From positions 1,759,089-1,823,088 of the forward strand of contig NZ_FWEX01000006.1 of NCBI RefSeq assembly GCF_900170025.1: DNA of 64,000 bases, written 5' to 3'. Of this stretch, positions 25,263 to 54,334 are shown piece by piece. Both the position numbers and the translations under genes were made by a program. The stretch is from Nitrospira sp. ND1. GTDB lineage: Bacteria; Nitrospirota; Nitrospiria; Nitrospirales; Nitrospiraceae. The notes under the pieces were generated by a model. The model saw only the letters and a list, made by a program, of their open reading frames with translations, was not told the DNA's origin and did no database searches. Each line of letters opens with the position of its first letter. Position 1 is the first letter of the stretch.

Positions 25263-25346
25263 ACTACCGCCTCGCGGTGAACCATATGACGGGCTTGATG
25301 TCGGGGCATTCTGACATAGCCCGACGGCAAAGTGAAGCAAGGGCAG

Positions 25347-33473: not shown

Positions 33474-34007
33474 TCAAGCATCACCGGACCCACTTGCGCT
33501 CCTCCGCCCCGAAGCCCAACGCAACAACAGCGGCAGCACGACCGCCCACAGGATAGACAGCAACAACAACGAGAGGGTCTCATTGCGGCCAAGCCGGAGC
33601 GCTCCGAGTTGTTGTCCTGCGTAGTAACTCAACGGACCGAAGATCCCCCCGACAAGCGCCGCCGACCGATTGCGCCCCGCCAACCAACGAAGAGACCCGT
33701 TCAACGTCGTCGCCAAGAGGCACCAGAGTGCGATCAACCAGGGCGGACACAGCCAGGGCGCGAAGGGGTTCTCGACAAACAAGAGGAAACCGGCGAAGCT
33801 GAGGGCGCTGTCCAGCAGCGTTCCGAACAATCCAACCACGATAACGATTCGAGTAGTTACGCGGGGATCGGCCGAGGACCAGACATTCACGCAGACCAGG
33901 CACGCCACCAGGAGCGGGCCGATCCATTGATAGGCCCAACCCGCGCCAAGGACAGCGATCCACCACCCGAGCTGAAAGACCACCGCATTGGCGATGGCGT
34001 TGCTCAT
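33474..34007 (-). CDS. DUF2878 integral membrane protein
   Basis: 177 residues with about five hydrophobic helices (VVFQLGWWIAVLGAGWAYQWIGPLLVACLVCV, IVIVVGLFGTLLDSALSFAGFLLF, PPWLIALWCLLATTLNGSL, and a C-terminal LLLLSILWAVVLPLLL). The motif LWCLLATTLNGSLRWL and GIFGPLSYYAGQQLGA are typical of DUF2878. The family is found beside CFA-type methyltransferases and photolyases, but its biochemical role is unknown. It overlaps the CFA gene by 4 bases (ATGA) and is the last gene of the light island. The frame stays open far upstream inside the CFA gene, but the real start is 34007. Confidence 0.82.
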   Translation of the reverse strand: MSNAIANAVVFQLGWWIAVLGAGWAYQWIGPLLVACLVCVNVWSSADPRVTTRIVIVVGLFGTLLDSALSFAGFLLFVENPFAPWLCPPWLIALWCLLATTLNGSLRWLAGRNRSAALVGGIFGPLSYYAGQQLGALRLGRNETLSLLLLSILWAVVLPLLLRWASGRRSASGSGDA

Positions 34008-35311
34008 CCTGCCAGGGAATCCTGCCGCCACCCGGATTTCGCGAACAGGAGGTGGGCCGTCGAAATCGACCGTTCGAGGAATCCGCCTTCGCAGTAGGAC
34101 AAATAAAAATCCCACAGCCGCAGGAACTCGGAACGAAATCCGAGCCGCCCCACATGCTCGACATTCTTCCGCAGGTTGTCGCGCCATCCTCGCAAGGTCG
34201 GCGGGTAATGCGCGCCGATATCCTGTAGATGCAACAGGCTGAAGTCCGAGGCCTGCGCCATGGCCCGACACAAGGTATTCACCGAGGGAATGCAACTACC
34301 GGGGAAGATGAAGCGTTGGATAAAATCGACCGACCGTTTCGCCCGCTCATAGTACCGCTCATCGATGGTGATCGCCTGGAGCAGCATCAGCCCGTCTGGT
34401 TTCAGCAGACGACTGCAGACATCGAAGAACGTGGGATAGTATTCATGGCCCACGGCCTCGATCATCTCCACCGAGACCAGCTTGTCGAACCGCAAGCCGA
34501 GCGCGGGCAAATCCCGATAATCGGTGAGCAGCACCCGCACACGATCGGACAGGCCGTCCTCACGCACACGGCGCACCGCCAATTCGTACTGCGCACGGGA
34601 AATCGTGGTCGTCGTCACTCGACAACCGTAGGTCTTCGCGGCGTGACAGGCCAGGCCGCCCCAGCCGGATCCGATTTCCACCAGATGGTCGTCTTCCCTC
34701 AGATGGAGCTTGCGGCAGATCAAATCGAGCTTGGCGCGTGAAGCCTCTTCCAGCGTGTTGTCGGGACGTTGGAAATAGGCGCAGGAGTACATCATGGTCC
34801 GGTCCAGCATCTGCGTAAAGAATTCGTTGCTCAGGTCGTAATGGGCCGCAATGTTTTGCCGGCTTCCCGTTTTGGTATTCCGTCGCAGCCGGTGCGCAAC
34901 CTTGAGCAACGGTGCGGACAAGCGCGCCACGCCCCGCTCCATGCCGTCCACGAGCGATCGATTCAACGCGAAAATCCGGACCAGCGCCGTGAGGTCGTCG
35001 CAATGCCAATCGCCACGGGCATAACTTTCTCCCGCACCCACCGTCCCGCTCCACGCGATGTCGAGATAACAGTCGGGCTCGAGAATAGTAATCGTCGCCT
35101 TGAGCGTTGAAACGGCGGCAGGCTCACCGAAGACCGTGCGGCGCGACCCCTCCACCACCGTGATCCTTCCCTGGATGAGCCGGCGCAGACGGGCACGGAC
35201 GATGCGTCTGGCAATCCGGACCAGCAGGCCGGGAGAAGGGTCAGACTCTGCGGCATGCGGCGGCTGCCGGTCCACGGCGGTTGAACAGTCGGTCGGCACG
35301 AGATCATTCAT
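34004..35311 (-). CDS. Cyclopropane-fatty-acid-synthase family SAM methyltransferase
   Basis: 435 residues. It is expected to transfer a methylene or methyl group from S-adenosylmethionine to an unsaturated acyl chain of a membrane phospholipid. Signatures: [31 protein letters not shown] motif [33 protein letters not shown], and [14 protein letters not shown]. The start at ATG 35311 is well supported by AAGGAGG at 8 bases. It overlaps DUF1365 upstream and DUF2878 downstream by 4 bases each, so all three are translationally coupled. Together with the FAD oxidase it could make methylated, cyclopropyl or furan-type lipids; which one cannot be told from sequence. Confidence 0.92.
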
Positions 35312-36093
35312 CCGGATATCCTCCTTGCATCGACGGAACGCCTGGACCTGTCGGGATGGGGAATGACGGGACAACGTTTCAACCACAGGCGCAACGCCTG
35401 CCAATGGATCGCCGCAATGACCTGCGTCGTCATCAGCGGGTACCGAAGCAACACACGGGCCAGGGACCTACCGGTCAACTCCTTCCGGCGCAGGACCATC
35501 GTGGCATCGAAGAATCGTTCTCCACCGCGGAAATTCTCCATGTGCACGGAAAGCGCTGCGCCGGGCGTGCCGAACCGCCAATCGTAGTCCACATCCATGC
35601 CCATGAACGGAGAGACGTGAAATTGCTTACCGAAGCGATACCGGTGTCGACGACCGATCCCCTCATCCAGGGAAGCACCGAGCACATAACAATGCTGTTC
35701 GCCCCACGGTGTGTTCGTCACTTCAGCCACAACGGTCTCAACCAGCCGATCGGCGGGGTCGAAACAATAGTAAAAGCTCACCGGGTTGAAGCCGTACCCG
35801 AAGTACCGCAGGTGCGTAAGCAGCCGGATCGGACCGGCCGGCCGGCGACCGGTCTTCGATTCGACGAGATCACGCACATTCTGATCCAGAGGCTTCTCCG
35901 GATCGCCCAGGTGGTCGCTCTGCCTAAACCAGGCCAGGTTCGGGGTCGCGGGAGACCAAAACCAGCGTTCATGGAAGAGGTCCGGTAATTCGGCCAGATC
36001 CAGATACATCATGAAGATCGAGTAGTGGAACGAATGGCGGGCCGGCGCATCGCGTCGATGCCTGACCGTTCCTTCATACACGCAGCTCTTCAT
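35308..36093 (-). CDS. DUF1365 family protein
   Basis: 261 residues, full length. The family signature is visible: [72 protein letters not shown] and [22 protein letters not shown]1365 genes almost always accompany a flavin amine-oxidase-like gene and a CFA-type gene, as here; the reaction is not established. It is coupled to both neighbours by 4-base overlaps. Confidence 0.92.
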
Positions 36094-37349
36094 GCATGCC
36101 CCGCCGTGAGCGCCTGACAGGCCGTCATGGCGCTCTTCACGCCGTCTTCATGGAAACCGAAGCCCCAATAGGCCCCGCAATACCACGTCCGGCGACGTCC
36201 GTTGATCTCCCCATGCCGTTGCTGCGCGGCGATCGCTTCGGGGGAAAAGACCGGATGGTGATACGTGATGCGCTGGAGAATCGTCGCCGGATCGATCGCC
36301 GCGCTGTGATTCAACGTCACGCAGAAATCGTACGGCGCGCTCAGCCCCTGGAGTCGATTCATGTGATAGGTCACCAAGGCATGGTCCGGCGGGTTCGGCA
36401 CCAGATGATAGTTCCAGGCCGCCCAGGCCAGGCGGCGTCTCGGAAGAAGCGATCGGTCTATGTGCAACACGGCTTCATTCGGTTGATAACGGATCGCCCC
36501 GAGAATTTCCTTCTCCAGGGGAGACGGGTCCGCTAACAGCGCCAACGCCTGGTCGCTATGGCAGGCGAGAAGGACTCCGTCGAATGACTCGGTCCGGTGG
36601 ATCCCGCGAGGGTCGCATCCCCGCACCTCGACACGGTCCGCGTAACGAGTGACCGATTCCACCGGAGACTGAAGCCGGATGCGGTCACGGAAGGGCCGCA
36701 CCAGGCGCTCGACATATTGCCGGGAGCCGCCGGTCACCACCCTCCAGGTCGGACGCGCATCGACCGACAACATGCCGTGGTTCTTGAAAAACTGAACGAG
36801 GTACCGCACCGGAAACTCCCGCATCGTGGCGCGGCCGGCCGACCAGATGGCCCCTGCCATGGGAACGATGTAGTGACGAATAAACGCCGGCGAGTAGCGA
36901 TTCTGCTCCAGATACGCGCCCAGCGAAGGGCCCGGGCCCGGTTGATCCAGCAATTCCAGGGACTCCCGATTGAAGCGGAGAATATCCCGGATCATGCGAT
37001 AGAACGAGGGCCGCAGCAGATTGCGCCGCTGGGCGAAGAGGCTGTTCAACGAGGTGCCGTTATACTCCAGCCCGGTTTCTTCGCAACGCACACTGAAGCT
37101 CATGTCGCTCGGCTGTGAGGCCACACCCAGGCGATCCAGCAGGGCCATAAAATTCGGGTAGGTCCAGTCATTGAATACGATAAAACCGGTATCGATCGCA
37201 TAGGTCGTCCCCTGCAGATTGACATCGACCGTGTTGGTATGACCCCCGATGTACGCACCGGCCTCGAAGATTGTGAGGTCATGATCCCGGTGGAGCACAT
37301 GCGCCGCCGTCATCCCCGCAATGCCCGTTCCGACAATGGCGAGCTTCAT
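36090..37349 (-). CDS. FAD-dependent amine-oxidase-like oxidoreductase
   Basis: About 419 residues. The dinucleotide motif [18 protein letters not shown] at the N terminus binds FAD, followed by [21 protein letters not shown]-like and C-terminal features ([23 protein letters not shown]) place it in the NAD(P)/FAD amine-oxidase superfamily. The length matches proteins that pair with DUF1365 and CFA-like methyltransferases. A desaturase or oxidase role on methylated acyl chains is plausible. The open frame extends to 37568, but the real start is ATG 37349, overlapping the SDR gene by 4 bases. Confidence 0.9.
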
Positions 37350-38116
37350 GACTGCTTCACCATCCTGGCGCAGAGGCCGATGTACCAGCGGCTCGGGAGC
37401 AGGGTCAGGAACTTGAAGAGCAGGCTGAATCGCCGCGGGAAATGAATCTCCGGCTTCCGGGCCTCGATCCCGTCGACGATGCGTCTGGCCGCGTCCTCGG
37501 CTTCGATCCTGAACGGCATCGGGAAATCGTTCCGGTCGGTCAACGGTGTCCGTACGAACCCCGGACACACGACCGACACGCTGATACCTTCGGGCGCGAG
37601 ATCGACTTGCAGCGATTCGAAGAGGTTCTTGATCGCCGCCTTCGACGCCCCGTAGGCTTCGGAGCGAGGCAACCCGCGATAGGCCACCGTACTGCTCATC
37701 CCCACGAGCTGCGGCGCCGGTGACTGCCGCAGCAGCGGGAGCGCCGCTTCAATCCCATAAACCATGCTCAGGAAGTTGGTGCGGATCGTCCGCTCGAACA
37801 GCGCACTGTCGAATGCCGCCACATCCACGTACTCGCAGGTGCCGGCGTTGAGAAAGGCAATGTCCAGGCCCCCTGCGCGGCGATGCATGTCGTTCACCGC
37901 GAGCTGATTGGCGGCCCGGTCGGTCACATCGAAAGGAAGCGCCGTGACGCGATCGTCTCCGCATTCACGGACGAGCTCGTTGAGCGCCGATTCGTTCCGC
38001 GCCGAGGCAAAAACGGTGGCCCCACGACGAACGAGTTCCAGCGTGACCGCCCGGCCGATACCGGTCGAGGCGCCGGTCACCCACACCCGTCGAGCATTGA
38101 GACTGGTTCGGCTCAT
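37346..38116 (-). CDS. Short-chain dehydrogenase/reductase
   Basis: 256 residues with a complete Rossmann SDR core: TGASTGIGRAV (cofactor binding), LNAG, MSSTVAYRG, and the catalytic YGASK. A C-terminal membrane-leaning helix (LLFKFLTLLPSRWYIGLCARMV) fits lipid-related SDRs. Substrate unknown. It sits in the same coupled block as the FAD oxidase. Confidence 0.92.
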   Translation of the reverse strand: MSRTSLNARRVWVTGASTGIGRAVTLELVRRGATVFASARNESALNELVRECGDDRVTALPFDVTDRAANQLAVNDMHRRAGGLDIAFLNAGTCEYVDVAAFDSALFERTIRTNFLSMVYGIEAALPLLRQSPAPQLVGMSSTVAYRGLPRSEAYGASKAAIKNLFESLQVDLAPEGISVSVVCPGFVRTPLTDRNDFPMPFRIEAEDAARRIVDGIEARKPEIHFPRRFSLLFKFLTLLPSRWYIGLCARMVKQS

Positions 38117-38119
38117 GGG

Positions 38120-38536
38120 TCACACTCGGCCTTTGATCGTCCGGATGAGCATGCCGATCAGCGGGAGCTGCTCGTACACCATCGCACCGGCATCGAAGTA
38201 GTCGCGGTGGTAGAACACCTTGTCCCGAAAACGAATGAGCGTTGAACCGGGAACCGTCACCACTGCTCCGGCATTGAGCCTCGGGTGATTCAGCTGCATG
38301 GTCCAGGTCAATACGGCACAATTGCCTTGCCGGACATCGTCCTCGAACCGGAATGAACAGGCCTCCACCTGCGCGTAGAGCGCAGCCAAATATTGGCGCA
38401 GGGCGGGGAGTCCGTCGATCCGGTGAAAGGGGTCTTGAAACTCGATGTCGTCGCTGTACAACTCGTTCAGCAATCCCAACGAGCGAACCGACAGTCCGCT
38501 GTAGATCTGTTTGAATCGTTCGACAACCGGTTGCAC
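38120..38536 (-). CDS. SnoaL/NTF2-like small protein (GTG start)
   Basis: 138 residues with the NTF2 cone signature (RFKQIYSGLSVRSLGLLNELYSDDIEFQDPFHRIDGLPALRQYLAALY, then VPGSTLIRFRDKVFYHRDYFDAG). It may bind a hydrophobic ligand or act as an isomerase or hydrolase. The GTG start has AGGAG 9 bases upstream. It ends 3 bases before the SDR gene. This partner is common in photolyase/CFA clusters. Confidence 0.85.
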   Translation of the reverse strand: MQPVVERFKQIYSGLSVRSLGLLNELYSDDIEFQDPFHRIDGLPALRQYLAALYAQVEACSFRFEDDVRQGNCAVLTWTMQLNHPRLNAGAVVTVPGSTLIRFRDKVFYHRDYFDAGAMVYEQLPLIGMLIRTIKGRV

Positions 38537-38615
38537 GACAGCGGACTCCTCTCCTGCTCTTCTACGAAGGAACCTGAGGGACGGATTCTTTCAGCGCCCC
38601 CCATCATCACCGGCG

Positions 38616-39215
38616 CTAGCCCCCCTCCCGCCGGTGCATGAGCCCCTCTTTCAACGCTTCATTGATCGGATCAGGGCCGAGCCAGATGGCGAAATACGCG
38701 GCGGCGAAGTCGGCCCCCTCCACAATGCCCTTCCGCTCGCCGTTCAAGGCGAGTTCGGTTCCGACTCCGGGGAGATAGGTCAGCCCGTACCGGTCCCCCG
38801 GCTTCACGTCCTGATAGAGCCGATGGAGCTGCTCGATGCGAGGCTTCAGGCGCGTGATCGTGGCCGGCGACATATTGTCGGCCAGCACCTTCATCGCCGC
38901 CCGCCCGAAGTCACCGGCCTGGATGGCTCTGAAGTAGGACAACTCCAGACGCTTCGGCACATCATCCAACACGCGCTCAGGTTTCGTCCCCGGGGCGAGA
39001 TACAGTGCCCCGACATACACCGTGATCGTACGCAGAAACTTCGCTACCCCCACCCCCTGAAGCGGCATCGGCAGGGGACCGGCCTGGAACGTATCGGCAA
39101 ACGTCACGCCTTCGATTTCAAACGCCCCGCCGATAACGGGCGAGGACACGAGTCCCGAAACCGCCAGCCCGATGACGACGAGCCACTCTGACATGTTCCC
39201 TGATCCGTGCATCAT
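38616..39215 (-). CDS. Exported chalcone-isomerase-like protein
   Basis: 199 residues with a signal peptide (GLAVSGLVSSPVIGGA). The chalcone-isomerase-like fold is indicated by EIEGVTFADTFQAG, LQGVGVAKFLRTITVYVGALYLAPG, KRLELSYFRAIQAGDFGRAA and YLPGVGTELALNGERKGIVEG. Bacterial members are thought to bind fatty acids rather than isomerise flavonoids. Two adjacent ATGs (39215 and 39212) follow GGGAG, and a third at 39194 is possible. It fits a lipid-handling role in the island. Confidence 0.82.
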   Translation of the reverse strand: MMHGSGNMSEWLVVIGLAVSGLVSSPVIGGAFEIEGVTFADTFQAGPLPMPLQGVGVAKFLRTITVYVGALYLAPGTKPERVLDDVPKRLELSYFRAIQAGDFGRAAMKVLADNMSPATITRLKPRIEQLHRLYQDVKPGDRYGLTYLPGVGTELALNGERKGIVEGADFAAAYFAIWLGPDPINEALKEGLMHRREGG

Positions 39216-39278
39216 CCGACTCCCAGGTGACCCCTGACCGGCATCCCGGCCGCACCTCTCCGTACCCAGGAACTCCGG

Positions 39279-39788
39279 TCAGGAGAATCGCCGCACCTGC
39301 TCGGCCAGCGTCCCCGCAACCAGGCTCAAATCAAACGGCCAGGCATAGCGCAACTCGACCCCGGGATACTGCGGTCGAAGATGATCGAGGATTTCAGGAA
39401 TCTCGACTTCCGAATGCGAACCGCCCGGCGTGAACATCGTGGTCGCCACGGTTATGCGGGTCGCTCCCTGCTTGACGAGTTGATCGACCGACTCTTCCAG
39501 CGTGGGTGCGCAAAACTCGTTATAGGCCACTGCAAACAACACATCGCCCAGGTTCGCGCGCAATTGCGCCGCCACCGCTTCAAGCCCGACCTGATACGGA
39601 TCCGTTTCGGCGTTCCTGGGCCACTGGCGGATTTTGGCATCCAATTCCAGTTCTTCGGCCGAGGCCGGTTGTTTCGCCGCGCGCCGCTGCCCCTCCAGCC
39701 GTTTCAATTTCGTCACCAGGTCCTGCGGGCATCCTCTGGGGATACCGCCATGTCCGACGAGAATCACACCCTGTCGCACTGTTGTCAT
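39279..39788 (-). CDS. CbiX/SirB-like protein (sirohydrochlorin chelatase family)
   Basis: 169 residues with one chelatase-like domain. GVILVGHGGIPRGCP opens it, followed by AYNEFCAPTLEESVDQLVKQGATRITVATTMFTPGGSHSEVEIPEIL, which holds the second-half histidine typical of CbiX. In the family this domain inserts Co or Fe into a tetrapyrrole on the way to cobalamin or siroheme. The first-half histidine also appears (GHGG). Start ATG 39788 has GAGGAG at 8 bases. Its place inside a B12-photoreceptor-controlled island is notable. Confidence 0.8.
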   Translation of the reverse strand: MTTVRQGVILVGHGGIPRGCPQDLVTKLKRLEGQRRAAKQPASAEELELDAKIRQWPRNAETDPYQVGLEAVAAQLRANLGDVLFAVAYNEFCAPTLEESVDQLVKQGATRITVATTMFTPGGSHSEVEIPEILDHLRPQYPGVELRYAWPFDLSLVAGTLAEQVRRFS

Positions 39789-39827
39789 GTCATCGCTCCT
39801 CTGATTGAAATTCACACCTGTTTGCAC

Positions 39828-40196
39828 TCACATCGACACCGGGGAATCCAGATACTCCTGGAGATTGGTCTTGCCGTAGCGGCTCGCCGAGTACACCTTC
39901 CGGATGAGTCCGGCCACCAGCGCCATCGCCTTTTTGACGGCCGGCGTCTTCTCGGGATCGGTGGCCGGGAGAAGGCGGACGGTGATGGTCGTTTCGTGCC
40001 GTTTCAGCTGGATGAAAAAACTGCGCGCCGTACCCTGCTCGATCACGACCGCATCCAGCAGCGCTTCCCGGCCGCTCTTCGCCAGGTAGCACTCCTGAAC
40101 CTTGACAATCTCCCCCTCCGTCCGTTGCAACATCGGGGCGAAGGCCTGGTACACAGCCTGGAGTTCACCGGTCGATTCGATCACTACGTGCGGCAT
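39828..40196 (-). CDS. Conserved small protein of unknown function
   Basis: 122 residues, soluble, start supported by AAAGGAG at 6 bases. The N terminus MPHVVIESTGELQAVYQAFAPM resembles the opening of tautomerase-like proteins, but no further motif is convincing. The C-terminal half is basic and helical. It sits between the repetitive element at 40.2 kb and the CbiX-like gene, 39 bases from the latter. I do not recognise it. Confidence 0.7.
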   Translation of the reverse strand: MPHVVIESTGELQAVYQAFAPMLQRTEGEIVKVQECYLAKSGREALLDAVVIEQGTARSFFIQLKRHETTITVRLLPATDPEKTPAVKKAMALVAGLIRKVYSASRYGKTNLQEYLDSPVSM

Positions 40197-40210
40197 CGTC
40201 GCTCCTTTCT

Positions 40211-40380
40211 AACAGGATGCGGAAAAAGTCCGCCAGCGGCGTTCTCGCGGCGCCCAGGGGCTCACCGTACGGCCCGAGTACGTTTCGCCTCTTCGCTTGC
40301 TGCGGCCTTGCTGGACGGCCTTTTTGCGCATCCTGCAGGTTCATGTATTGCGTATCCATCGAGTGTTTCCGCAGCCTGCT
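40211..40380. repeat. Palindromic-ended dispersed element, copy A (MITE-like)
   Basis: Matches the reverse complement of 52574-52782 over most of its length. One end reads AACAGGATGCGGAAAAAG (40211-40228), the other TTTCCGCAGCCTGCT (40366-40380), so the termini are inverted repeats. A third copy of the end (CTTTTTGCGCATCCTGC, 40320-40336) lies inside. It carries no gene. Its right end contributes the TAG stop of the DUF523/DUF1722 gene. Confidence 0.85.
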
Positions 40381-41329
40381 ACACATGATTGCGGAGCATC
40401 AACTCCTTCGGATGCGGATTCAGATACACCTGGTCGCGAATGTATTCGACATCGAAGAGCTGGACGTAGTGTTTGATCAATGTCAGCGGAACAATCAGCG
40501 GCGTGAGTCCCTGGTGGTAATCCGCGATCACACCCAACAGCTCGGCCTTTTCCTGCGCATCCAGTCGTTCTTTGAAATGGCCCAGGATGTGCTGGAGCAC
40601 ATTCACATGTTTTCGCACCGTCGCCTTCGCCGCGAGGGCCTGCATAAACAGTTCGCCGTACCGGATGGCCAGGTCCTTCGGACGATACTCGTTCACCTGC
40701 GCAACCAATCGCCCGAGCTGACGATAGTGCGGGACGCTATGAGCCAGGAGCAGATATTTCTGGATCGTATGAAACCGCACCAACGCCTGCCTCGTGACGC
40801 CGCGCTGTATCAGATCCTGCCAACGACGGTAGCAGAACACCCGCTCGATGAAGTTTTCTCGCAGGAGCGGATCGCAGAGCCGCCCCTCCTCCTCCACCGG
40901 AATGAGCGGAAACCGATCGAGAAAGGCGCGTGCAAACAACCCCACACCCTTTCTGCCTGGCATGCCATGCTCGTTGTAGGTACGAACCCGCTCCACCCCG
41001 CAACTCGGCGAGTCTTTCTTGAACACAAACCCGGACAGGTCCAGCTCCTCAAGATCACCCAGACGCTTCCCGGCCATCGTCTCCAACGCCAGCGTGTGGT
41101 CCCGCCCGCTCTTAATGGCGACCAGCCGCGGCTGTTCGGGATTGCCGATGAGTCGCATCGCTTCACGCGGGGTACCGAGCCCGGCTTCGACTTCCGGGCA
41201 GACCGGCACCCACTCCACGTAGCGGCCCAGAACATCGGTCAGAAACACGTCCCGTTTGTGGCCTCCATCGAAACGGACCTCTTCGCCAAGCAGGCACCGG
41301 CTAATGCCCAGGCGAAGCGGAGTGGTCAT
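40379..41329 (-). CDS. DUF523 and DUF1722 two-domain protein
   Basis: About 316 residues. The N-terminal DUF523 domain has conserved cysteines (GISRCLLGEEVRFDGGHKRD, VPVCPEVEAGLGTPREAMRL, KKDSPSCGVERVR) that could bind a metal or iron-sulfur cluster. The C-terminal DUF1722 (YbgA-like) begins at RRWQDLIQRG and ends LNPHPKELMLRNHV. This fusion commonly neighbours photolyase genes. The start is one of two adjacent ATGs (41332 or 41329) after AGGTG and overlaps the photolyase stop. The stop codon TAG is formed by the end of the repeat element. Confidence 0.88.
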   Translation of the reverse strand: MTTPLRLGISRCLLGEEVRFDGGHKRDVFLTDVLGRYVEWVPVCPEVEAGLGTPREAMRLIGNPEQPRLVAIKSGRDHTLALETMAGKRLGDLEELDLSGFVFKKDSPSCGVERVRTYNEHGMPGRKGVGLFARAFLDRFPLIPVEEEGRLCDPLLRENFIERVFCYRRWQDLIQRGVTRQALVRFHTIQKYLLLAHSVPHYRQLGRLVAQVNEYRPKDLAIRYGELFMQALAAKATVRKHVNVLQHILGHFKERLDAQEKAELLGVIADYHQGLTPLIVPLTLIKHYVQLFDVEYIRDQVYLNPHPKELMLRNHV

Positions 41330-42774
41330 CATGCCTTCACCTGCCCCTTTCCGAGATCCAAATATTCCTGGCGCGCTTGCCGATGGTCCACGATCGGCTC
41401 CGGATAATCCGATCCGATGCGGCATCCGGCCTGCACCTGTTCCAACGGCGGCATGAGATGCGGCTCATGAATCCATTTCGTGGGCACGTGCTTGAGTTCC
41501 GGGACATAGCGGCGAAGATATTCCCCCTCGGCATCGAACTTTTCGCTCTGGATTCTCGGATTAAAAATCCTGTAGCCCTGCATGGCATCCGTCCCCGTCG
41601 AGGCGCACCATTGCCAGTTGCCGTTGTTGGCGGCCAGGTCTCCGTCGACGAGCCGTTCCATGAAATAGCGCTCTCCGCTCTGCCAATCGATCCGGAGATC
41701 CTTCACCAGAAACGAGGCGACCACCATTCGCACGCGATTGTGCATCCATCCCGTCTGGTTCAATTGGCGCATGCCGGCATCCACAATCGGGTAGCCCGTG
41801 AGGCCCTGAGACCAGGCGGCAAACAACCGGTCGCGCTCAGGCCCCGCTGGTCTGGGCTCGGGAAGTCCCGGTTTCGCTTTGAACGGCCCATGCGCCACGT
41901 GGGGAAACGCCGTGAGGACTTGCTGAAAAAATTCCCGCCAGACCAGTTCATCGATCCAGGTGAAGACGTCCGCGCGCGACACCGCGCCGCCTTGTGCAAG
42001 CGCGTTCAGCGCCGCATGCACCAACGTGCGTGCGGAGATCGTCCCGAAACGCAGATGGGGAGACAACTTGGAGGTACCGTCGCTCGCCGGAAGATTTCTG
42101 CCGGTCACATACTGATGAACCGGCCCCCCCAGGAACCACTGCAGCCTGGCATGCGCAGCCTGTTCACCCGGCTGGATCCACATCGGCACCGACTCATATC
42201 CGAGATCCGTCACTGAAGGCCATTCCCGCGAGTCAGAAGCGGATGCCTTGCCGGCCGGCGGAAACGAGGGAATGCCCAGCAGAGGAGGGGCAGCGGCCCG
42301 CCATTTTGCCCACCAGCGGTCGCGATACGCGCTGTAGCGCTGAAACGGATCTCCGCTCAGCCCGCGCACTTCCTCCGCTTCGAACACGACATGGTCCTTG
42401 AACGTCCTGACCGTGCGACCCTGTTGTGCCAGCCGCTGCTGAACGGTGCGATCCCGCTCCAGCGCCGCCGGTTCATAGTCCCGGTTCCAATACACTGCAT
42501 CGACCTTGAAGTCGGACGCCGCCTGCATGACCGATTCAATCGGATCGCCCATCCGCCAGGCGAGGGACACGCCGTGCAGGGCCAGGGACCGGCGCAACTC
42601 CTCCAGACACCCCAGCATGAACCCGACGCAGGCGGAACCGAAGACGTGCGAACGCAGCAGCGGTTCATCGAACACGAACAGCGGCACAATCTCCTGACAT
42701 TCCTGACACGCCGCCGACAGGGCGGGGTTGTCACGGAGCCGGAGATCTCGACGCAACCAGACCAGACCCTTCAT
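41329..42774 (-). CDS. phrB: Deoxyribodipyrimidine photolyase
   Basis: 481 residues. It repairs UV-induced cyclobutane pyrimidine dimers with blue light. The N-terminal antenna-binding domain starts KGLVWLRRDLRLRDNPAL. The C-terminal FAD domain shows SKLSPHLRFGTIS, WREFFQQVL and GYPIVDAGMRQLNQTGWMHNRVRMVVASFLVKDLRIDWQSGERYFMERLVDGDLAANNGNWQW. The start at ATG 42774 has GAGG at 8 bases. It overlaps the preceding membrane-protein gene by 4 bases. It is the clearest photoprotective gene in the island. Confidence 0.96.
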   Translation of the reverse strand: MKGLVWLRRDLRLRDNPALSAACQECQEIVPLFVFDEPLLRSHVFGSACVGFMLGCLEELRRSLALHGVSLAWRMGDPIESVMQAASDFKVDAVYWNRDYEPAALERDRTVQQRLAQQGRTVRTFKDHVVFEAEEVRGLSGDPFQRYSAYRDRWWAKWRAAAPPLLGIPSFPPAGKASASDSREWPSVTDLGYESVPMWIQPGEQAAHARLQWFLGGPVHQYVTGRNLPASDGTSKLSPHLRFGTISARTLVHAALNALAQGGAVSRADVFTWIDELVWREFFQQVLTAFPHVAHGPFKAKPGLPEPRPAGPERDRLFAAWSQGLTGYPIVDAGMRQLNQTGWMHNRVRMVVASFLVKDLRIDWQSGERYFMERLVDGDLAANNGNWQWCASTGTDAMQGYRIFNPRIQSEKFDAEGEYLRRYVPELKHVPTKWIHEPHLMPPLEQVQAGCRIGSDYPEPIVDHRQARQEYLDLGKGQVKA

Positions 42775-43202
42775 AGGGGAACCTCGGGAGAGGAGGACGC
42801 CAGCCGCTGCGCCGGAGGAACAGGATCGGCGAACAGGATTCGCCGCCAGGCCACATAACAGAGAAACAAGGCTGTGGTGGCCATGAAGCCCGTGCGTAAC
42901 TGATGGAACCCGAATTGAAACTGGTTCATCAATTCGCTGGTAAGACCGAAGCCCCCATACGCCATGGCCAAGCCCCAGGCCCACGGACGCAGAAACAGAA
43001 ACCCGTAACCGATCAGAAAATGCACGGCCGGCGAATGGAGCTTGACCACATAGGCCAGCGGACCGGTGATCGTGACGCCGAACAGTTTCAACGCATAGGC
43101 GGGAAAAAATTCGATGATCAGCACATCGATCAATCCCACCAGCAGAAAGAGCGCCCCGAACAGTTTGATATCGATGCCTCGTGAAGTCGTGTGCGCGGTC
43201 AT
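42771..43202 (-). CDS. Four-helix membrane protein of unknown function
   Basis: 143 residues with four predicted membrane helices (LFGALFLLVGLIDVLIIEFF, ITGPLAYVVKLHSPAVHFLIGYGFLFL, WAWGLAMAYGGFGLTSELM, LRTGFMATTALFLCYVAWRRILF). A purine-rich AAGGAG lies 9-10 bases before ATG 43202. It is coupled to the photolyase by an ATGA overlap, so co-expression is certain in practice; the function is not known. Confidence 0.72.
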   Translation of the reverse strand: MTAHTTSRGIDIKLFGALFLLVGLIDVLIIEFFPAYALKLFGVTITGPLAYVVKLHSPAVHFLIGYGFLFLRPWAWGLAMAYGGFGLTSELMNQFQFGFHQLRTGFMATTALFLCYVAWRRILFADPVPPAQRLASSSPEVPL

Positions 43203-46479: not shown

Positions 46480-47310
46480 TCACTTCGCTGTCTCTCCACC
46501 CCGGACACACCGGAATCCGGTGCCATGCGTCTGCAGCGCGAATCCTCCTCGTCCCCGCGCCGTGGCGGTAATATCCGACTGGGGACTGTGCCACGACCCT
46601 CCACGAATCACCCGGACGATCCCCTTGTCGGGGCCCTGCGGGTTCTTGTCGGGAGCATTCGCGTAGTAGTCAGGGGCATACCAATCCTGCACCCATTCCC
46701 GCGCGTTCCCGGACATATCCTTGATCCCGTACGGCGAGTCGCCTCCGGACAACGAACCGACGACGTGCAACGTCTTGTCGTCGACCCACTCCCGATCGAA
46801 GTTCGCCCGGGTCGGACTCGGGGGCTCGTTGCCCCACGGGAACATCCGGCCATCGGTACCGCGCGCGGCCTTCTCCCACTCCGCTTCGGTGGGCAGCCGT
46901 TTCTTGGCCCACGCGCAATACGCTTTGGCGTCGTACCACGTCACCTGCACAACCGGCAGCTGCTCGACCCCTTTGGCCGAGACCAAGACCCCGGTGCCAT
47001 AGGGATTCGGCGGGCTGCGATGGCCGGTTGTGGCGACAAACGCCATGTACCGCTCATTGGTCACTTCCACCTGATCGATGGCGAACGTATCGACATAAAC
47101 CGACCGTTGCGGCCACTCGTCGGCCCGCCCCTTGGGATTCTCACTGCCCATCAGAAACGTTCCGCCCGGCACGGTGACCATCGGAACCGGATCCAGCTCC
47201 TTGAGAGTCGGCGCCGCAAGGACAGGTGTCAGGGCGACCGCACAGGTTGCCGCCACGAACAGGCTCATGCATCTCCACCTGGTTCTTCTCCTGGTCAAAC
47301 CTTGAGTCAT
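46480..47310 (-). CDS. Exported SUMF/FGE-fold protein lacking FGE cysteines
   Basis: 276 residues with a signal peptide (CMSLFVAATCAVALTPVLAA). The sulfatase-modifying-factor fold is plain: MVTVPGGTFLMGSENPKGRADEWPQRSVYVDTFAIDQVEVTNERY, RLPTEAEWEKAARG, PWGNEPP, MSGNAREWVQDWY, VIRGGSWHSPQSDITATARGRGG, GTGFRCV. The stretch after RGGSW, where formylglycine-generating enzymes have their two active-site cysteines, has none. AGGAG lies 8 bases before the ATG. The start overlaps the stop of the preceding gene. Confidence 0.9.
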   Translation of the reverse strand: MTQGLTRRRTRWRCMSLFVAATCAVALTPVLAAPTLKELDPVPMVTVPGGTFLMGSENPKGRADEWPQRSVYVDTFAIDQVEVTNERYMAFVATTGHRSPPNPYGTGVLVSAKGVEQLPVVQVTWYDAKAYCAWAKKRLPTEAEWEKAARGTDGRMFPWGNEPPSPTRANFDREWVDDKTLHVVGSLSGGDSPYGIKDMSGNAREWVQDWYAPDYYANAPDKNPQGPDKGIVRVIRGGSWHSPQSDITATARGRGGFALQTHGTGFRCVRGGETAK

Positions 47311-47675
47311 TTCTTCTGCTCCTTGCTCCCCGCGATTGCCTGGGCCGTATGAATCTTGATCTCACCGACAAGCCGTTCCACCTTGCCCGTGTCTCCCCGG
47401 TCGGCCGCCTCCTGCGCCTGTGTCACAAGGGTTCTGGCTTCATGCAAATGAAGTTCAATCTGCGCCTGCAGATCAGGCGATGCCACGGTGCCTCCCAGGG
47501 CCGCGCGGTGATACACCTCCCACGCGTGATCCACGCTGTGTTCCGCCTCATGCACCATCTGAAGTTTCTCCGGATGGGGGTGCCGGCTGGCATCGATCGG
47601 ACCGGCTTGGAGATCAGCCGTCATCAAGAGCGCGCTGAATCCGCCGACCAGTGTGATCATCGTGCTGTACGTCAT
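47307..47675 (-). CDS. Exported His-rich helical protein
   Basis: 122 residues. A signal sequence (ITLVGGFSALLMTADLQAG) precedes a helical body with many histidines (SRHPHPEKLQMVHEAEHSVDHAWEVYHRA, then LHLHEARTLVTQAQ). GGAGG lies 7-8 bases before ATG 47675. The spacing of His and Glu could bind a metal, which would suit a secreted partner of the SUMF proteins, but no family is recognised. Confidence 0.62.
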   Translation of the reverse strand: MTYSTMITLVGGFSALLMTADLQAGPIDASRHPHPEKLQMVHEAEHSVDHAWEVYHRAALGGTVASPDLQAQIELHLHEARTLVTQAQEAADRGDTGKVERLVGEIKIHTAQAIAGSKEQKK

Positions 47676-47725
47676 GGCTCTGCCTCCGTCGGGTGTATGG
47701 CGGGCCGGCCCCCCGCCTTGTGCAC

Positions 47726-48784
47726 TCATCGCTGTTTCATCGATTGTTCGATGAGAGGCCGCAGCTCCAACAGTTCAACGTTCGCCGGATCCATGGCCAA
47801 ACCCCGGCTGACTGCCTGCTGGGCCTCGCTGAAGCGTTCCCGCCCCATTTCCACTAGCGCAGTGATGTAGCTGTCCCTGATGCGCTGCTCCCAGTCAGCC
47901 GGAGCCGATTTGGCGCACCTGAAACCGAGGCCGACGCCATAGCTGTTATTGAGCGGATGATTCCAGAACCGGTGCGTCGAGCGAATCGTGCCTTCCGGCG
48001 CGATCCACGAGCCACCGCGGATGACGCGCTTTTCGCCGACGGTCAAGCGGTCTACGTAGGTTCCGGTTCCACCGACCCACAAGGGTTTTTCCGGACCGGT
48101 GGGATTCACCATGGTTCCGAGTCTCCCGTAGTATTTCGGGTCATACCAGTCGCCGACCCATTCGAAGACATTGCCCGCCATGTTGTACACGCCGTAGTAG
48201 CTGGCGCCCTCCGGATGAGAATCCACCGACAAGGTCGCATCATGATGCCTGTCATAATTTGCCTTGTTGGAATCGAAGTCGTTGCCCCAGGGATAGAGGT
48301 TGCCGTGCGGGCCGCGGGCCGCCTTTTCCCATTCGGCTTCGGTGGGCAACCGCTTCTCGCGATATTCGCAGTAGGTTTTGGCATCGATCCAATTGACGCC
48401 CACCACCGGCTGCTGAGGCTTATTCAAGCGCGGATCGTCCCAGTAGGCCGGCGCCGGATGACCGGTCGCCTTGATGAAGGCGCCATAGTCCTTGTTCGAC
48501 ACCTCGTATTTGTCGATGAGATAGGAATCCAGGAACACCGTATGCGCCGGCCCTTCGTCGTTGAACGCTTCGGCAGACAAAGGCGTCTTCATCCGTTTGT
48601 CGTACAGCGTGAGCCGGCGGCCGGAATCTGCCGGCTGGGCCTTGTCTAATCCCATGATCGACGGTCCCTGTCCCACATACACCATGTCTGCGGGAATCTT
48701 GGACTCCTCAGCCTGTGCCGTCGCCGTCATGATGGCGACAGTCATGATGAGCCCTGCCCCGACTGCGTTCCCCATTGTCTTCAT
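47726..48784 (-). CDS. Exported SUMF-fold protein with TPR-like tail
   Basis: 352 residues. A signal peptide (ending TATAQA) precedes a SUMF domain (about 30-300): FLDSYLIDKYEVSNKDYG, KRLPTEAEWEKAARGPHGNLYPWGNDF, YNMAGNVFEWVGDWYDPKYYG, VIRGGSWIAPEGTIRSTHRFW, GLGFRCA. The cysteines of true formylglycine-generating enzymes are missing. The last about 45 residues (ALVEMGRERFSEAQQAVSRGLAMDPANVELL) form a TPR-like hairpin shared with the next gene, so the two are paralogues. CAGGAGG precedes the ATG. Confidence 0.9.
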   Translation of the reverse strand: MKTMGNAVGAGLIMTVAIMTATAQAEESKIPADMVYVGQGPSIMGLDKAQPADSGRRLTLYDKRMKTPLSAEAFNDEGPAHTVFLDSYLIDKYEVSNKDYGAFIKATGHPAPAYWDDPRLNKPQQPVVGVNWIDAKTYCEYREKRLPTEAEWEKAARGPHGNLYPWGNDFDSNKANYDRHHDATLSVDSHPEGASYYGVYNMAGNVFEWVGDWYDPKYYGRLGTMVNPTGPEKPLWVGGTGTYVDRLTVGEKRVIRGGSWIAPEGTIRSTHRFWNHPLNNSYGVGLGFRCAKSAPADWEQRIRDSYITALVEMGRERFSEAQQAVSRGLAMDPANVELLELRPLIEQSMKQR

Positions 48785-48849
48785 GCGACACCTCCTGCCC
48801 CTGAGGGCCGGGCCGGGGGACGGTCACCCGCCCCCTCCACGGTTATGTG

Positions 48850-49812
48850 CTACTTCTTCATGCTCTTTTTGATGAGATCGCGAGTGGCCAGATACTCTTT
48901 GTTGTCGGGATCCGCCGCCAACGCCTTCTCGATGGAGGCGAGGGCGTCGGCGTTCTTCTCCGCTCCCATGCCGACGAGCGCCTGAATGAAGGCATCACGC
49001 CCGGCTTGAGCGGCTTCGTCGGAGACCATGCTGGCCGACTTCGCGCAACGGAAACCCAGTCCGACGCCGTAGGAGTTGTTTTCGGGCTGATTCCAGAACC
49101 GGTGGCTGGTGTGCAGCGAGGTTTCCGGAGCCAGCCAGGACCCGCCGCGCAAGACCTTCACCGGGCCTTGATTGGCGAAGTTGTAGCCCTTCTCGGCGCC
49201 ACGGGGATTGAGCGCGTTGCTGGTGCGGTAATATTTCGGGTCGTACCAGTCATCCACCCACTCGAAGACGTTGCCGGCCATGTTGTACACGCCATAGCCG
49301 CTCACGCCTTCAGGGTAGGAGTCCACCGGCGTAGTGCGTCCCACATTCTGTCCATAGTTGGCCTTCTTCGGATCGAGGTGATGCCCCCATGGATAGTGGT
49401 TGTCTCCCTCCGGGCCCTTGGCGGCCTTTTCCCATTCCGCCTCGGTGGGCAACCGCTTGCCATCCCACTTACAAAAGGCGTTGGCGTCCGTCCAACTCAC
49501 TCCGACTACCGGTTGCTCGGGCTTGCTGAGCCGCGGGTCGTCCCAATAGGCCGGTGCCGGATGACCGGTGGCCCGCATGAACTCCTTGTACCGCGTGTTC
49601 GACGCTTCGAACTTGTCGATCAGATAGGCATCGAGCACTACCTGATGCCTCGCCTCGTCGGAATGTTCGTGACTGCCCATGGTGAACTCGCCGCTCGGGA
49701 TGAGGACCATGTCCTTATGGTCGCCGGCGGCCTTCGCCGACACCCCCATCGACATGGATCCAGCCACAAGCACCGCTCCTATTCCAATTTGAAGACCTAT
49801 GTGCCTCCGCAT
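48850..49812 (-). CDS. Exported SUMF-fold protein with TPR-like tail, second paralogue
   Basis: 320 residues with a signal peptide (GAVLVAGSMSMGVSAKAA). SUMF signatures: MVLIPSGEFTMGSHEHSDEARHQVVLDAYLIDKFEASNTRYKEF, KRLPTEAEWEKAAKG, YNMAGNVFEWVDDWYDPKYY, VLRGGSWLAPETSLHTSHRFW, GLGFRCA. No active-site cysteine pair follows RGGSW. The tail (ALVGMGAEKNADALASIEKALAADPDNKEYL) matches the downstream paralogue. AAGGAGG lies 7 bases before ATG 49812. Confidence 0.91.
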   Translation of the reverse strand: MRRHIGLQIGIGAVLVAGSMSMGVSAKAAGDHKDMVLIPSGEFTMGSHEHSDEARHQVVLDAYLIDKFEASNTRYKEFMRATGHPAPAYWDDPRLSKPEQPVVGVSWTDANAFCKWDGKRLPTEAEWEKAAKGPEGDNHYPWGHHLDPKKANYGQNVGRTTPVDSYPEGVSGYGVYNMAGNVFEWVDDWYDPKYYRTSNALNPRGAEKGYNFANQGPVKVLRGGSWLAPETSLHTSHRFWNQPENNSYGVGLGFRCAKSASMVSDEAAQAGRDAFIQALVGMGAEKNADALASIEKALAADPDNKEYLATRDLIKKSMKK

Positions 49813-49869: not shown

Positions 49870-50166
49870 CTAAACAGAGACCTGGCCCTGCAGGGCCGGC
49901 TTCGATGTTTTCATTTCCCGTACTACGCCGGCGGCCTGCTGCAGGTGCCGGTTCCATCGGATGACCGGATCAACGACATCACCGCATTGCACACAACGCG
50001 AAGTGGAGGAATCGAGCCCGCTTGCCCCGCTGAGCAGGTCCGTGCAGAAATCACGAACCATCAGTCCGCCGCACCGCAGGCAGTTCGACTCCTGGTAAAG
50101 AGTCAGAATCTGTCTTCGGATTTCACTTACTGGCACAGTTCCTTCCATTGTCTTTGTGGTCGCCAT
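49870..50166 (-). CDS. Zinc-ribbon protein, first gene of the light island
   Basis: 98 residues. Two CxxC knuckles (CLRCGGLMVRDFC... and CVQCGDVVDPVIRWNR) align with the ribbon protein encoded at 45717-46076. The ATG at 50166 has GAGGAG at 6 bases. It is the first gene after the divergent promoter region and its leader contains an operator copy. A role as a small regulator or metal carrier is possible. Confidence 0.72.
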   Translation of the reverse strand: MATTKTMEGTVPVSEIRRQILTLYQESNCLRCGGLMVRDFCTDLLSGASGLDSSTSRCVQCGDVVDPVIRWNRHLQQAAGVVREMKTSKPALQGQVSV

Positions 50167-50186: not shown

Positions 50187-50280
50187 TGTCCAATGTTTGC
50201 AACCTCTATGTCCAATGTTTAACCTTTTTTGTCCAATGTGTCAATAGTTATTTCAATAAATATTTGACAAACATTGGACA
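50187..50280. promoter_or_regulatory. Four-copy operator array for the CarH-type regulator
   Basis: The 12-bp word TGTCCAATGTTT occurs at 50187-50198 and 50209-50220. TGTCCAATGTGT lies at 50230-50241. The reverse complement AAACATTGGACA is at 50269-50280. The first three are spaced 22 and 21 bp, about two helical turns. One copy overlaps the -10 and one the -35/spacer of the minus-strand promoter, and one lies in the spacer of the plus-strand promoter. The arrangement suggests repression of both directions. Confidence 0.78.
50216..50244 (-). promoter_or_regulatory. Promoter of the minus-strand light island
   Basis: On the minus strand TTGACA (50244-50239), 17 bases, then TAAACA (50221-50216). 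The -35 is perfect, the -10 weak, as expected for a regulated promoter. Predicted start near 50209; the leader to ATG 50166 is about 43 bases. Operator copies lie across it. Confidence 0.6.
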
Positions 50281-50292
50281 CAACCATATACT
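50264..50292 (+). promoter_or_regulatory. Promoter of the CarH-type regulator gene
   Basis: TTGACA (50264-50269), a 17-base spacer and TATACT (50287-50292). An inverted operator copy fills the spacer. The predicted start near 50299-50300 leaves only about 4 bases before ATG 50304, a nearly leaderless message. Confidence 0.75.
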
Positions 50293-50303
50293 TGGGCTCA
50301 ACA

Positions 50304-51221
50304 ATGAATACGCACAGAATTCATAGGGTTGCGAAGCTCACCGGTCTGAGTCGCGATGTGATTCGGGTGTGGGAGCGCCGATTTGGCCTGTTGAAACCGA
50401 CACGAGGCGCGAATCGCTATCGCAATTATTCGGATGAAGATGTGGCCTTGCTGCGCTATCTGAAGCAGCAATTGGATGCGGGGGCTTCAATCGGTGATCT
50501 CGCCAAGCTGGGGCGTGAGGAGCTGATCACCCGCCTGCGCACGGAAGCGCCGCGCCCCGCCGTGGTGGACAATACGTTCGACCGACTCTTGCGGGAACTG
50601 CTCTCGGCCTTGGAACCATTCGACCGCGTCACATTCGAGAAACGCTTGAACGGCGCGGTCGCAGTCGTCCCGTTTGAAGAGGCACTCCACGGAATTCTGC
50701 TCCCGCTGCAGGAACGCGTCGGAGACCTGTGGCACAGCGGGCGCATCAGTATCGCCCTGGAACATTACGTGACCAGCCAAATTGAACAAAAACTGTATGC
50801 GGCCATGAATCAATTGCCGGTGGCGGAATTCGGCGCGAAAGTCGTCGTGGCCTGCCCGCCCGGTGAGGAGCACGACATTGCGGCATTGGCAGTCGCCTAC
50901 CGTTGCCGCGTGCGTGGATGCCGGGTCTACTACTTAGGAGCCAACGTGCCGATCTCCTCCCTCGGCAGGCTCTGCAGGGAGGTCGCCCCGGATCTGGCCA
51001 TCCTGTCGTTGACCCTGGTGCTGCAGGAAGGCAACGCAGCGGAATTGATTCACTCGCTCGCAGAGGAATTGAAACCCGTTACCACGGTCATGGCCGGCGG
51101 CCATGGCGCGCGCGTGATGCGCGATCAGTTTGCGCAATACCGCATCGATGTCCTGGATACCTTCAGCGAGTTGGACGAAGTGCTGGATCGATTCACCAGG
51201 CGATTTACGATCCCGGGATGA
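50304..51221 (+). CDS. carH: CarH/LitR-type AdoCbl-dependent light-sensing MerR regulator
   Basis: 305 residues. An N-terminal MerR helix-turn-helix (HRVAKLTGLSRDVIRVWERRFGLLKPTRGANRYRNYSDEDVALLRYL) precedes a four-helix-bundle plus a Rossmann-type cobalamin domain. The Wx9EH motif of AdoCbl photoreceptors is exact: Trp143, Glu153, His154 (LWHSGRISIALEH). His144 next to the Trp and His190 (GEEHDIA) match the light-state and dark-state ligands of T. thermophilus CarH in spacing. In that family the dark AdoCbl tetramer represses, and light breaks the Co-C bond and releases DNA. It is divergent from the 23-gene island. The start is ATG 50304; a TTG at 50274 lies inside the promoter. Confidence 0.9.
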   Translation: MNTHRIHRVAKLTGLSRDVIRVWERRFGLLKPTRGANRYRNYSDEDVALLRYLKQQLDAGASIGDLAKLGREELITRLRTEAPRPAVVDNTFDRLLRELLSALEPFDRVTFEKRLNGAVAVVPFEEALHGILLPLQERVGDLWHSGRISIALEHYVTSQIEQKLYAAMNQLPVAEFGAKVVVACPPGEEHDIAALAVAYRCRVRGCRVYYLGANVPISSLGRLCREVAPDLAILSLTLVLQEGNAAELIHSLAEELKPVTTVMAGGHGARVMRDQFAQYRIDVLDTFSELDEVLDRFTRRFTIPG

Positions 51222-52573: not shown

Positions 52574-52782
52574 CTAGCAGGCTGCGGAAAAACTCGATTG
52601 TTGCGTCATACGCCGAGATCAGTTCATGTGGCGTGTTGGTATCAGAATCGGTCGCAGGATGCGCAAAAAGGCCGTCCAGCAAGGCCGCAGCGAGCGAAGA
52701 GGCGAATCGTACCCTCTGCCGTACGGTGAGCGTCTGAGCGATGCGAGAACGCCGCTGGCGGCCTTTTTCCGCATCCTGCTAG
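52574..52782. repeat. Palindromic-ended dispersed element, copy B (MITE-like)
   Basis: 209 bp, opposite orientation to copy A (40211-40380). The ends are 19-bp inverted repeats with one mismatch: CTAGCAGGCTGCGGAAAAA and the complement of TTTTTCCGCATCCTGCTAG. An internal end-like copy (GCAGGATGCGCAAAAAGG) and a core rich in GCC/GGC hairpins follow the layout of copy A. A frame through it (KAVQQGRSERRGES) is not a gene. The right end supplies the TAG stop of the P450 gene. Confidence 0.87.
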
Positions 52783-54161: not shown

Positions 54162-54334
54162 TGAGTGAGGTGAGACGGTTGATTGTTGGACGCGCCGGGC
54201 ATTGGATCTCACAAGGACTGTTCCGCATCGTACAAACTTCGCGTGAAGAGTGGTAGGGCCGAACCACCAGGGCTACATGGCGTACAGCTGGCTGGCACTT
54301 GCGTTGGTAACGTTCCTACCGTGTGAATCTGGCG

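What the first reader, a model, noticed from the sequence alone, without database searches (positions are those of the whole stretch)
50187..50292. Operator array read in both directions, with copies inside promoter spacers
TGTCCAATGTTT occurs three times directly at 21-22 bp steps and once inverted. Both divergent promoters contain TTGACA followed by a CATTGGACA copy in the spacer, so a bound repressor would block RNA polymerase on both sides. The 22-bp periodicity equals two 11-bp half-site steps, as in tetrameric CarH binding.
Basis: partly seen in the sequence, partly recalled or inferred. Interest (0 to 1): 0.7.

Follow-up and report, generated by a model that had tools for sequence, protein, structure and literature searches.

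The report
Bidirectional CarH-type light-repressor operator in Nitrospira
In a nitrite-oxidising Nitrospira bacterium, four near-identical DNA sites sit across two back-to-back promoters and are very probably where a vitamin-B12-type light-sensing repressor (CarH-like) shuts off both its own gene and a DNA-repair/photoprotection gene cluster in the dark.

Summary
TGTCCAATG occurs exactly four times in the 64-kb window, all between 50187 and 50280: three direct copies (22- and 21-bp steps) and one inverted. Both divergent promoters (TTGACA-17-TATACT rightward; TTGACA-17-TAAACA leftward) carry one copy in the spacer. The layout is conserved in 38 distinct Nitrospira arrays, one of them (L028) rearranged: the first step is always 22 bp, the second 21 or 22. 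In 41 genomes the composite TTGACA-N0-3-CATTRRACA matches only these arrays plus one stray. It is present in 21/21 genus genomes with the regulator and 0/4 without it. The adjacent gene is a MerR + B12-binding protein with CarH photoreceptor signatures (Wx9EH, lower-axial His). The leftward cluster includes a DNA photolyase. Best explanation: a CarH/LitR-type operator pair repressing both promoters in the dark; a new member of a known kind. The 11-bp unit is clear at the rightward operator and in a sister family. In the leftward operator the middle 11-bp slot is only a degenerate repeat, so strong sites stand 22 bp apart. Tetramer binding, B12 use and light response are inferred, not shown.

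The parts
50187..50197 (+). Site 1, TGTCCAATGTT (direct repeat; on the minus strand TGGACA fits the CarH TnnACA core); lies just downstream of the predicted leftward start
50198..50208 (+). Degenerate middle repeat slot (TGCAACCTCTA) at +11; TG conserved in 97% of arrays, full TGTnnA core in a few (L029, L030)
50209..50219 (+). Site 2, TGTCCAATGTT; overlaps the leftward -10
50230..50240 (+). Site 3, TGTCCAATGTG; inside the leftward promoter spacer and touching its -35
50239..50244 (-). Leftward promoter -35 TTGACA
50216..50221 (-). Leftward promoter -10 TAAACA (TATACA in many relatives), 17-bp spacer
50264..50269 (+). Rightward promoter -35 TTGACA; also a TnnACA repeat core exactly 11 bp from site 4
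50270..50280 (-). Site 4, TGTCCAATGTT inverted; inside the rightward promoter spacer
50287..50292 (+). Rightward promoter -10 TATACT, 17-bp spacer
50304..51221 (+). CarH/LitR-like regulator: MerR domain, four-helix B12 domain with WHx8EH, Rossmann B12 domain with ExHxxA
49870..50166 (-). First leftward gene: 98-aa protein with paired CxxC-type cysteines (probable zinc ribbon, no Pfam hit)
46480..49812 (-). Three formylglycine-generating-enzyme (FGE/SUMF1)-like genes and one small hypothetical gene, tightly packed
41329..42780 (-). DNA photolyase, downstream in the same colinear cluster
34004..41425 (-). Rest of colinear cluster: 2-thiouracil desulfurase/DUF1722, CbiX-like, chalcone isomerase-like, short-chain dehydrogenase, FAD amine oxidoreductase, DUF1365, cyclopropane-fatty-acid synthase-like

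Best explanation
The 106-bp region is a pair of CarH/LitR-type operators between two divergent sigma-70-type promoters. The regulator encoded to the right (MerR DNA-binding domain plus B12-binding domain) binds direct repeats with the core TGTnnA (TnnACA on the other strand). Operator L (sites 1, 2, 3) runs from the spacer of the leftward promoter across its -10 into the transcribed leader. Operator R (site 4 plus the -35 hexamer 11 bp away) covers the -35 and spacer of the rightward promoter. In the dark the adenosylcobalamin-bound protein would occupy both and exclude RNA polymerase, holding down its own gene and the leftward cluster, which includes a DNA photolyase. Light would break the Co-C bond and release the DNA. 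Shown here by sequence: the repeats, both promoters, their conservation, genome uniqueness, co-occurrence with the regulator, and the regulator's CarH-like domains and key residues. Inferred: that this protein binds these sites, repression, use of AdoCbl, and light response.
For: Exact repeat array far above chance. Conserved in 38 distinct arrays with the promoter hexamers: site1-site2 = 22 bp in 38/38, site2-site3 = 21 (32) or 22 (6); near-invariant columns at the sites. TTGACA-N0-3-CATTRRACA matches only these arrays plus one stray in 41 genomes, reversed-pattern control 0; found in 21/21 Nitrospira-genus genomes with the regulator and 0/4 without. Regulator is MerR + B12-binding, best PDB match CarH (E 1e-28; Foldseek), keeps W-x9-EH and the lower-axial His in orthologues. 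Site core fits the published CarH repeat nnnnTnnACAn, and known CarH operators overlap or embed the -35 TTGACA (PMC9304148). Spacers are 17-18 bp, which suits repression rather than MerR-type activation over 19-20 bp (general knowledge). A regulator paralogue carries its own array of the same layout. A sister-family locus has explicit 11-bp tandem TGTCTATAGTT repeats. Two cobalamin adenosyltransferase families are encoded in the genome.
Against: No binding or expression data. ExHxxG is ExHxxA in all Nitrospira orthologues of this gene. NCBIfam CarH model scores 131.9 bits against a cut-off of 400, so the protein is not called an equivalog. The middle 11-bp slot of operator L is degenerate. A TnnACA core in a 9-mer arises by chance in about 3% of 9-mers, so fit to the CarH core alone is weak evidence.
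Confidence: 0.82

Rival explanations
1. Same operator and same repressor, but the protein is not a B12 photoreceptor: it works without AdoCbl or with another partner or signal, as CarA of Myxococcus and class II LitR of Pseudomonas do.
For: ExHxxA instead of ExHxxG in all Nitrospira orthologues; B12-independent relatives exist (PMC8156234, PMC9758184). The Glu189/Asn214 pair replaces the CarH dimer salt bridge (from the alignment; CarH residue roles from memory).
Against: W-x9-EH, which CarA and class II lack or do not need, is intact; the His after the Trp, the lower-axial His, S-x-T and GG are kept. Adenosyltransferases are present.
Confidence: 0.2
2. The sites are bound by a conventional MerR-type dimer on dyad operators that activates transcription by untwisting the spacer.
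For: MerR DNA-binding domain; sites lie in promoter spacers.
Against: Spacers are 17-18 bp rather than the 19-20 bp typical of MerR activation (general knowledge); repeats are direct, not dyads; three of four sites sit at or downstream of the leftward -10, where activators rarely bind.
Confidence: 0.05
3. A different, unlinked regulator binds the array.
For: No direct binding data.
Against: Array and regulator are present or absent together in 25 genus genomes; the regulator paralogue has its own copy of the array; one deletion in G015 removes both.
Confidence: 0.06

Closest known systems
CarH operators of Thermus thermophilus, Bacillus megaterium and myxobacteria
   Same: Direct repeats with TnnACA core; overlap with the promoter and inclusion of the -35 TTGACA; mix of full (DR) and degenerate (dr) repeats, e.g. 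DR1-dr2-DR3-DR4-dr5 at the M. xanthus crt promoter; in some myxobacteria expected to control divergent promoters (PMC9304148).
   Different: Strong repeats at 22/21-bp rather than contiguous 11-bp steps on the leftward side; sites placed inside the -35/-10 spacers; the target is a photolyase/FGE-like gene cluster, not a carotenoid operon.
Class II LitR (PplR1/PmlR2) of Pseudomonas
   Same: MerR-family light-response repressor acting on a gene set with photolyase and a fatty-acid-modifying methyltransferase-type enzyme; paired sites at the -35 and downstream of the start (PMC9758184).
   Different: Their consensus is TGTACA-N12-TGTACA; they lack a complete B12 domain and can use a LOV partner.
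CarA of Myxococcus xanthus
   Same: Related MerR/B12 domain protein, operator covering the -35.
   Different: CarA lacks the Trp of Wx9EH and works without B12; here the motif is intact.

Membership tests
CarH/LitR class I B12 photoreceptor repressor (the protein) | MerR-type N-terminal DNA-binding domain with RxWERRY-like recognition helix | tested here: met
   PF13411/PF00376; RVWERRF
CarH/LitR class I B12 photoreceptor repressor (the protein) | Intact Wx9EH motif in the four-helix bundle | tested here: met
   WHSGRISIALEH; W and EH kept in every full-length homologue
CarH/LitR class I B12 photoreceptor repressor (the protein) | D/ExHx2G/P-x41-SxT/V-x22-27-GG cobalamin motif | tested here: inconclusive
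   E188, H190, S235, SxT and G265-G266 present with matching spacing, but the G/P position is Ala in all Nitrospira orthologues (motif)
CarH/LitR class I B12 photoreceptor repressor (the protein) | NCBIfam CarH equivalog score (400 bits) | tested here: not met
   131.9 bits, best match by far but below cut-off
CarH/LitR class I B12 photoreceptor repressor (the protein) | AdoCbl-dependent oligomer in the dark, disassembled by light | not testable with these tools
   needs protein; dimer salt-bridge positions differ (Glu/Asn)
CarH operator (the DNA) | TnnACA-core repeats | tested here: met
   TGGACA at all four sites; TTGACA at both -35s
CarH operator (the DNA) | 11-bp tandem spacing | tested here: inconclusive
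   Exact 11 bp at the rightward operator and in L085; leftward strong sites 22/21 bp apart with a degenerate middle slot
CarH operator (the DNA) | Overlap with -35 and/or -10 | tested here: met
CarH operator (the DNA) | Bound by the cognate protein | not testable with these tools
   needs gel shift or footprint

The most novel reading that the evidence does not exclude
Nitrospira uses an operator variant in which the strong repeats occupy every second 11-bp slot (22-bp steps), so that one head-to-tail CarH dimer grips two outer repeats (as reported for DR1 and DR3 in the Thermus structure) while the middle repeat has been relaxed; in addition, a B12/light switch controls a photolyase-FGE-type cluster in nitrite oxidisers.
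Probability: 0.35. Interest if true: 0.5.

Novelty: new member of a known kind. Interest (0 to 1): 0.42.

Why it matters
Nitrifiers are inhibited by light, yet a dedicated light switch for Nitrospira was not found described in the open papers searched. A conserved B12-type repressor with a single, unique target region gives a compact, directly testable model of how these nitrite oxidisers could turn on DNA photorepair, and it adds a naturally varied set of about 38 operators (including a split and a shifted array) for studying how CarH proteins read repeats.

Tried and rejected
Other genomic targets: five further exact TGTCCAATGT sites in the genome are single copies; four lie inside long reading frames (L001, L007, L008, L009) and none shows a promoter composite. 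A 22-bp-spaced pair with up to 3 mismatches finds this locus plus one 3-mismatch hit, with one hit in the reversed control. The composite with up to 3 mismatches is uninformative (116 hits, control 101). A conserved third 11-bp repeat upstream of the rightward -35 was considered and dropped (offset 22 from site 4 scores 1.79 of 4). A fixed phase between the two operators was rejected: the site 3 to site 4 distance varies over 4 bp. No plasmid record matches the region. The open paper on the B. megaterium CarH operator was not held.

Full report
Observation. TGTCCAATG is found exactly four times in the window, at 50187, 50209, 50230 (+) and 50272-50280 (-). The exact expectation in 64 kb is 0.58, and no other 9-mer (apart from its own one-base shift) occurs four times within 100 bp; none of 2000 shuffles of the region reproduced it. 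Steps are 22 and 21 bp. The region is 38.5% G+C in a 59.8% G+C window.

Promoters. The rightward promoter is TTGACA-17-TATACT; the leftward is TTGACA-17-TAAACA. Each spacer holds one CATTGGACA. Site 2 overlaps the leftward -10, and site 1 lies in the transcribed leader (positions).

Neighbourhood. To the right lies a 305-aa MerR + B12-binding protein. To the left, all on the minus strand, lie a probable zinc-ribbon protein, three FGE/SUMF1-like proteins, then an epimerase, a PDZ protein, a DNA photolyase, a 2-thiouracil desulfurase/DUF1722 protein, a short-chain dehydrogenase, an FAD amine oxidoreductase, DUF1365 and a cyclopropane-synthase-like methyltransferase. Gaps of about 400-550 bp interrupt this row near 46.1-46.5 kb and 39.8-40.4 kb, so co-transcription down to the photolyase is inferred.

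Organism. The window lies in a Nitrospira genome; its regulator is 93-96% identical to those of the closest Nitrospira records, including Ca. Nitrospira defluvii.

Conservation. In 38 distinct upstream regions, site 1 to site 2 is 22 bp in 38/38; site 2 to site 3 is 21 bp in 32 and 22 in 6; the site 3 to site 4 distance varies, so the two operators are separate modules. Both -35 hexamers are near-invariant, and spacers are 16-18 bp by best match. Column conservation is 0.87-1.00 for most site positions and falls in between. In the middle slot, TG at +11 is 97% conserved but the rest varies. In L030 site 1 has decayed and the middle slot has become a full repeat (TGTTCAATGTA), which argues that the 11-bp slot is usable. 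In L028 an insertion or duplication of about 700 bp splits the array: a degenerate copy stays with the leftward gene and the rightward operator stays with the regulator.

Specificity. In 41 genomes, TTGACA-N0-3-CATTRRACA matches only arrays of this kind plus one stray hit in G029; the reversed control gives none. All 21 genus genomes with the regulator have it, and the 4 without an intact regulator do not. Two of those four (G010, G017) are fragmented assemblies, so their absence is weaker. G007, a single-contig 99% complete genome, lacks the regulator, array and photolyase. G015 has one junction joining the regulator's last codons to the small hypothetical gene of the leftward cluster, removing the array and first genes, while the photolyase remains. 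Direct site pairs are also essentially confined to this locus.

Regulator. Best solved relatives are Thermus CarH entries, and a predicted model (mean pLDDT 84, pTM 0.67) finds the same CarH entries first (the whole-chain fit is poor, TM about 0.5, because domains are oriented differently, while the B12-domain entries fit at target TM about 0.8). All orthologues keep W-x9-EH and the axial His; ExHxxG is ExHxxA. A second regulator copy in several genomes keeps ExHxxG and has its own array of the same layout. Cobalamin adenosyltransferase families PF02572 and PF01923 are both present. N. marina is B12-dependent and salvages it (PMC8115632).

11-bp register. Published CarH repeats are 11 bp with nnnnTnnACAn, three to five per operator with full and degenerate members, and in Thermus one head-to-tail dimer contacts DR1 and DR3 (PMC9304148; PMC8156234). 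Here site 4 and the rightward -35 are exactly 11 bp apart (score 3.92 of 4 at offset 11). In L085, from another family and 48% identical, five TGTnnA repeats occur with steps 11, 12, 19, 11 (0 of 20000 shuffles gave two pairs at 11). Sites 1 and 2 would then be DR1 and DR3 with a degenerate DR2.

Conclusion. A CarH/LitR-type bidirectional operator, very likely autoregulatory and controlling a photolyase-containing cluster. What it works like: a CarH repressor system (strong). Whether the protein is a bona fide AdoCbl photoreceptor CarH: likely but untested, with one motif position changed and an NCBIfam score below cut-off. Caveat: the Thermus CarH letters used as reference were taken from the alignment printed, with a few end residues from memory.

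Noticed in passing
L029:8046, L034:9016, L035:5047, L036:9617: A second CarH-like gene (51-53% identical) about 3-5 kb downstream in several Nitrospira, with canonical ExHxxG and its own array of the same layout; in L034-L036 it is divergent to a gene whose start encodes a membrane protein with a CVSCH haem-type motif (NapC/NirT-like by eye).
   Followed up: partly
50287-50306: The rightward -10 ends only 11 bases before the regulator's ATG with no clear Shine-Dalgarno sequence; the spacing is kept in relatives, so the regulator mRNA may be nearly leaderless.
   Followed up: partly
L087 (G015): One deletion junction fuses the last codons of the regulator to the small hypothetical gene of the leftward cluster, removing the operator array and first genes while the photolyase remains elsewhere on the contig.
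   Followed up: partly
L028:1400-2173: Array apparently duplicated and split by about 700 bp, each half decayed on the side it no longer needs.
   Followed up: partly
25332-33436: Two adjacent genes resembling a two-partner secretion pair (536-aa outer-membrane-transporter-like and 2164-aa haemagglutinin-like repeat protein); judged by eye only.
   Followed up: no
52779-54212: Cytochrome P450-like gene near the regulator, conserved in L014; judged by eye.
   Followed up: no
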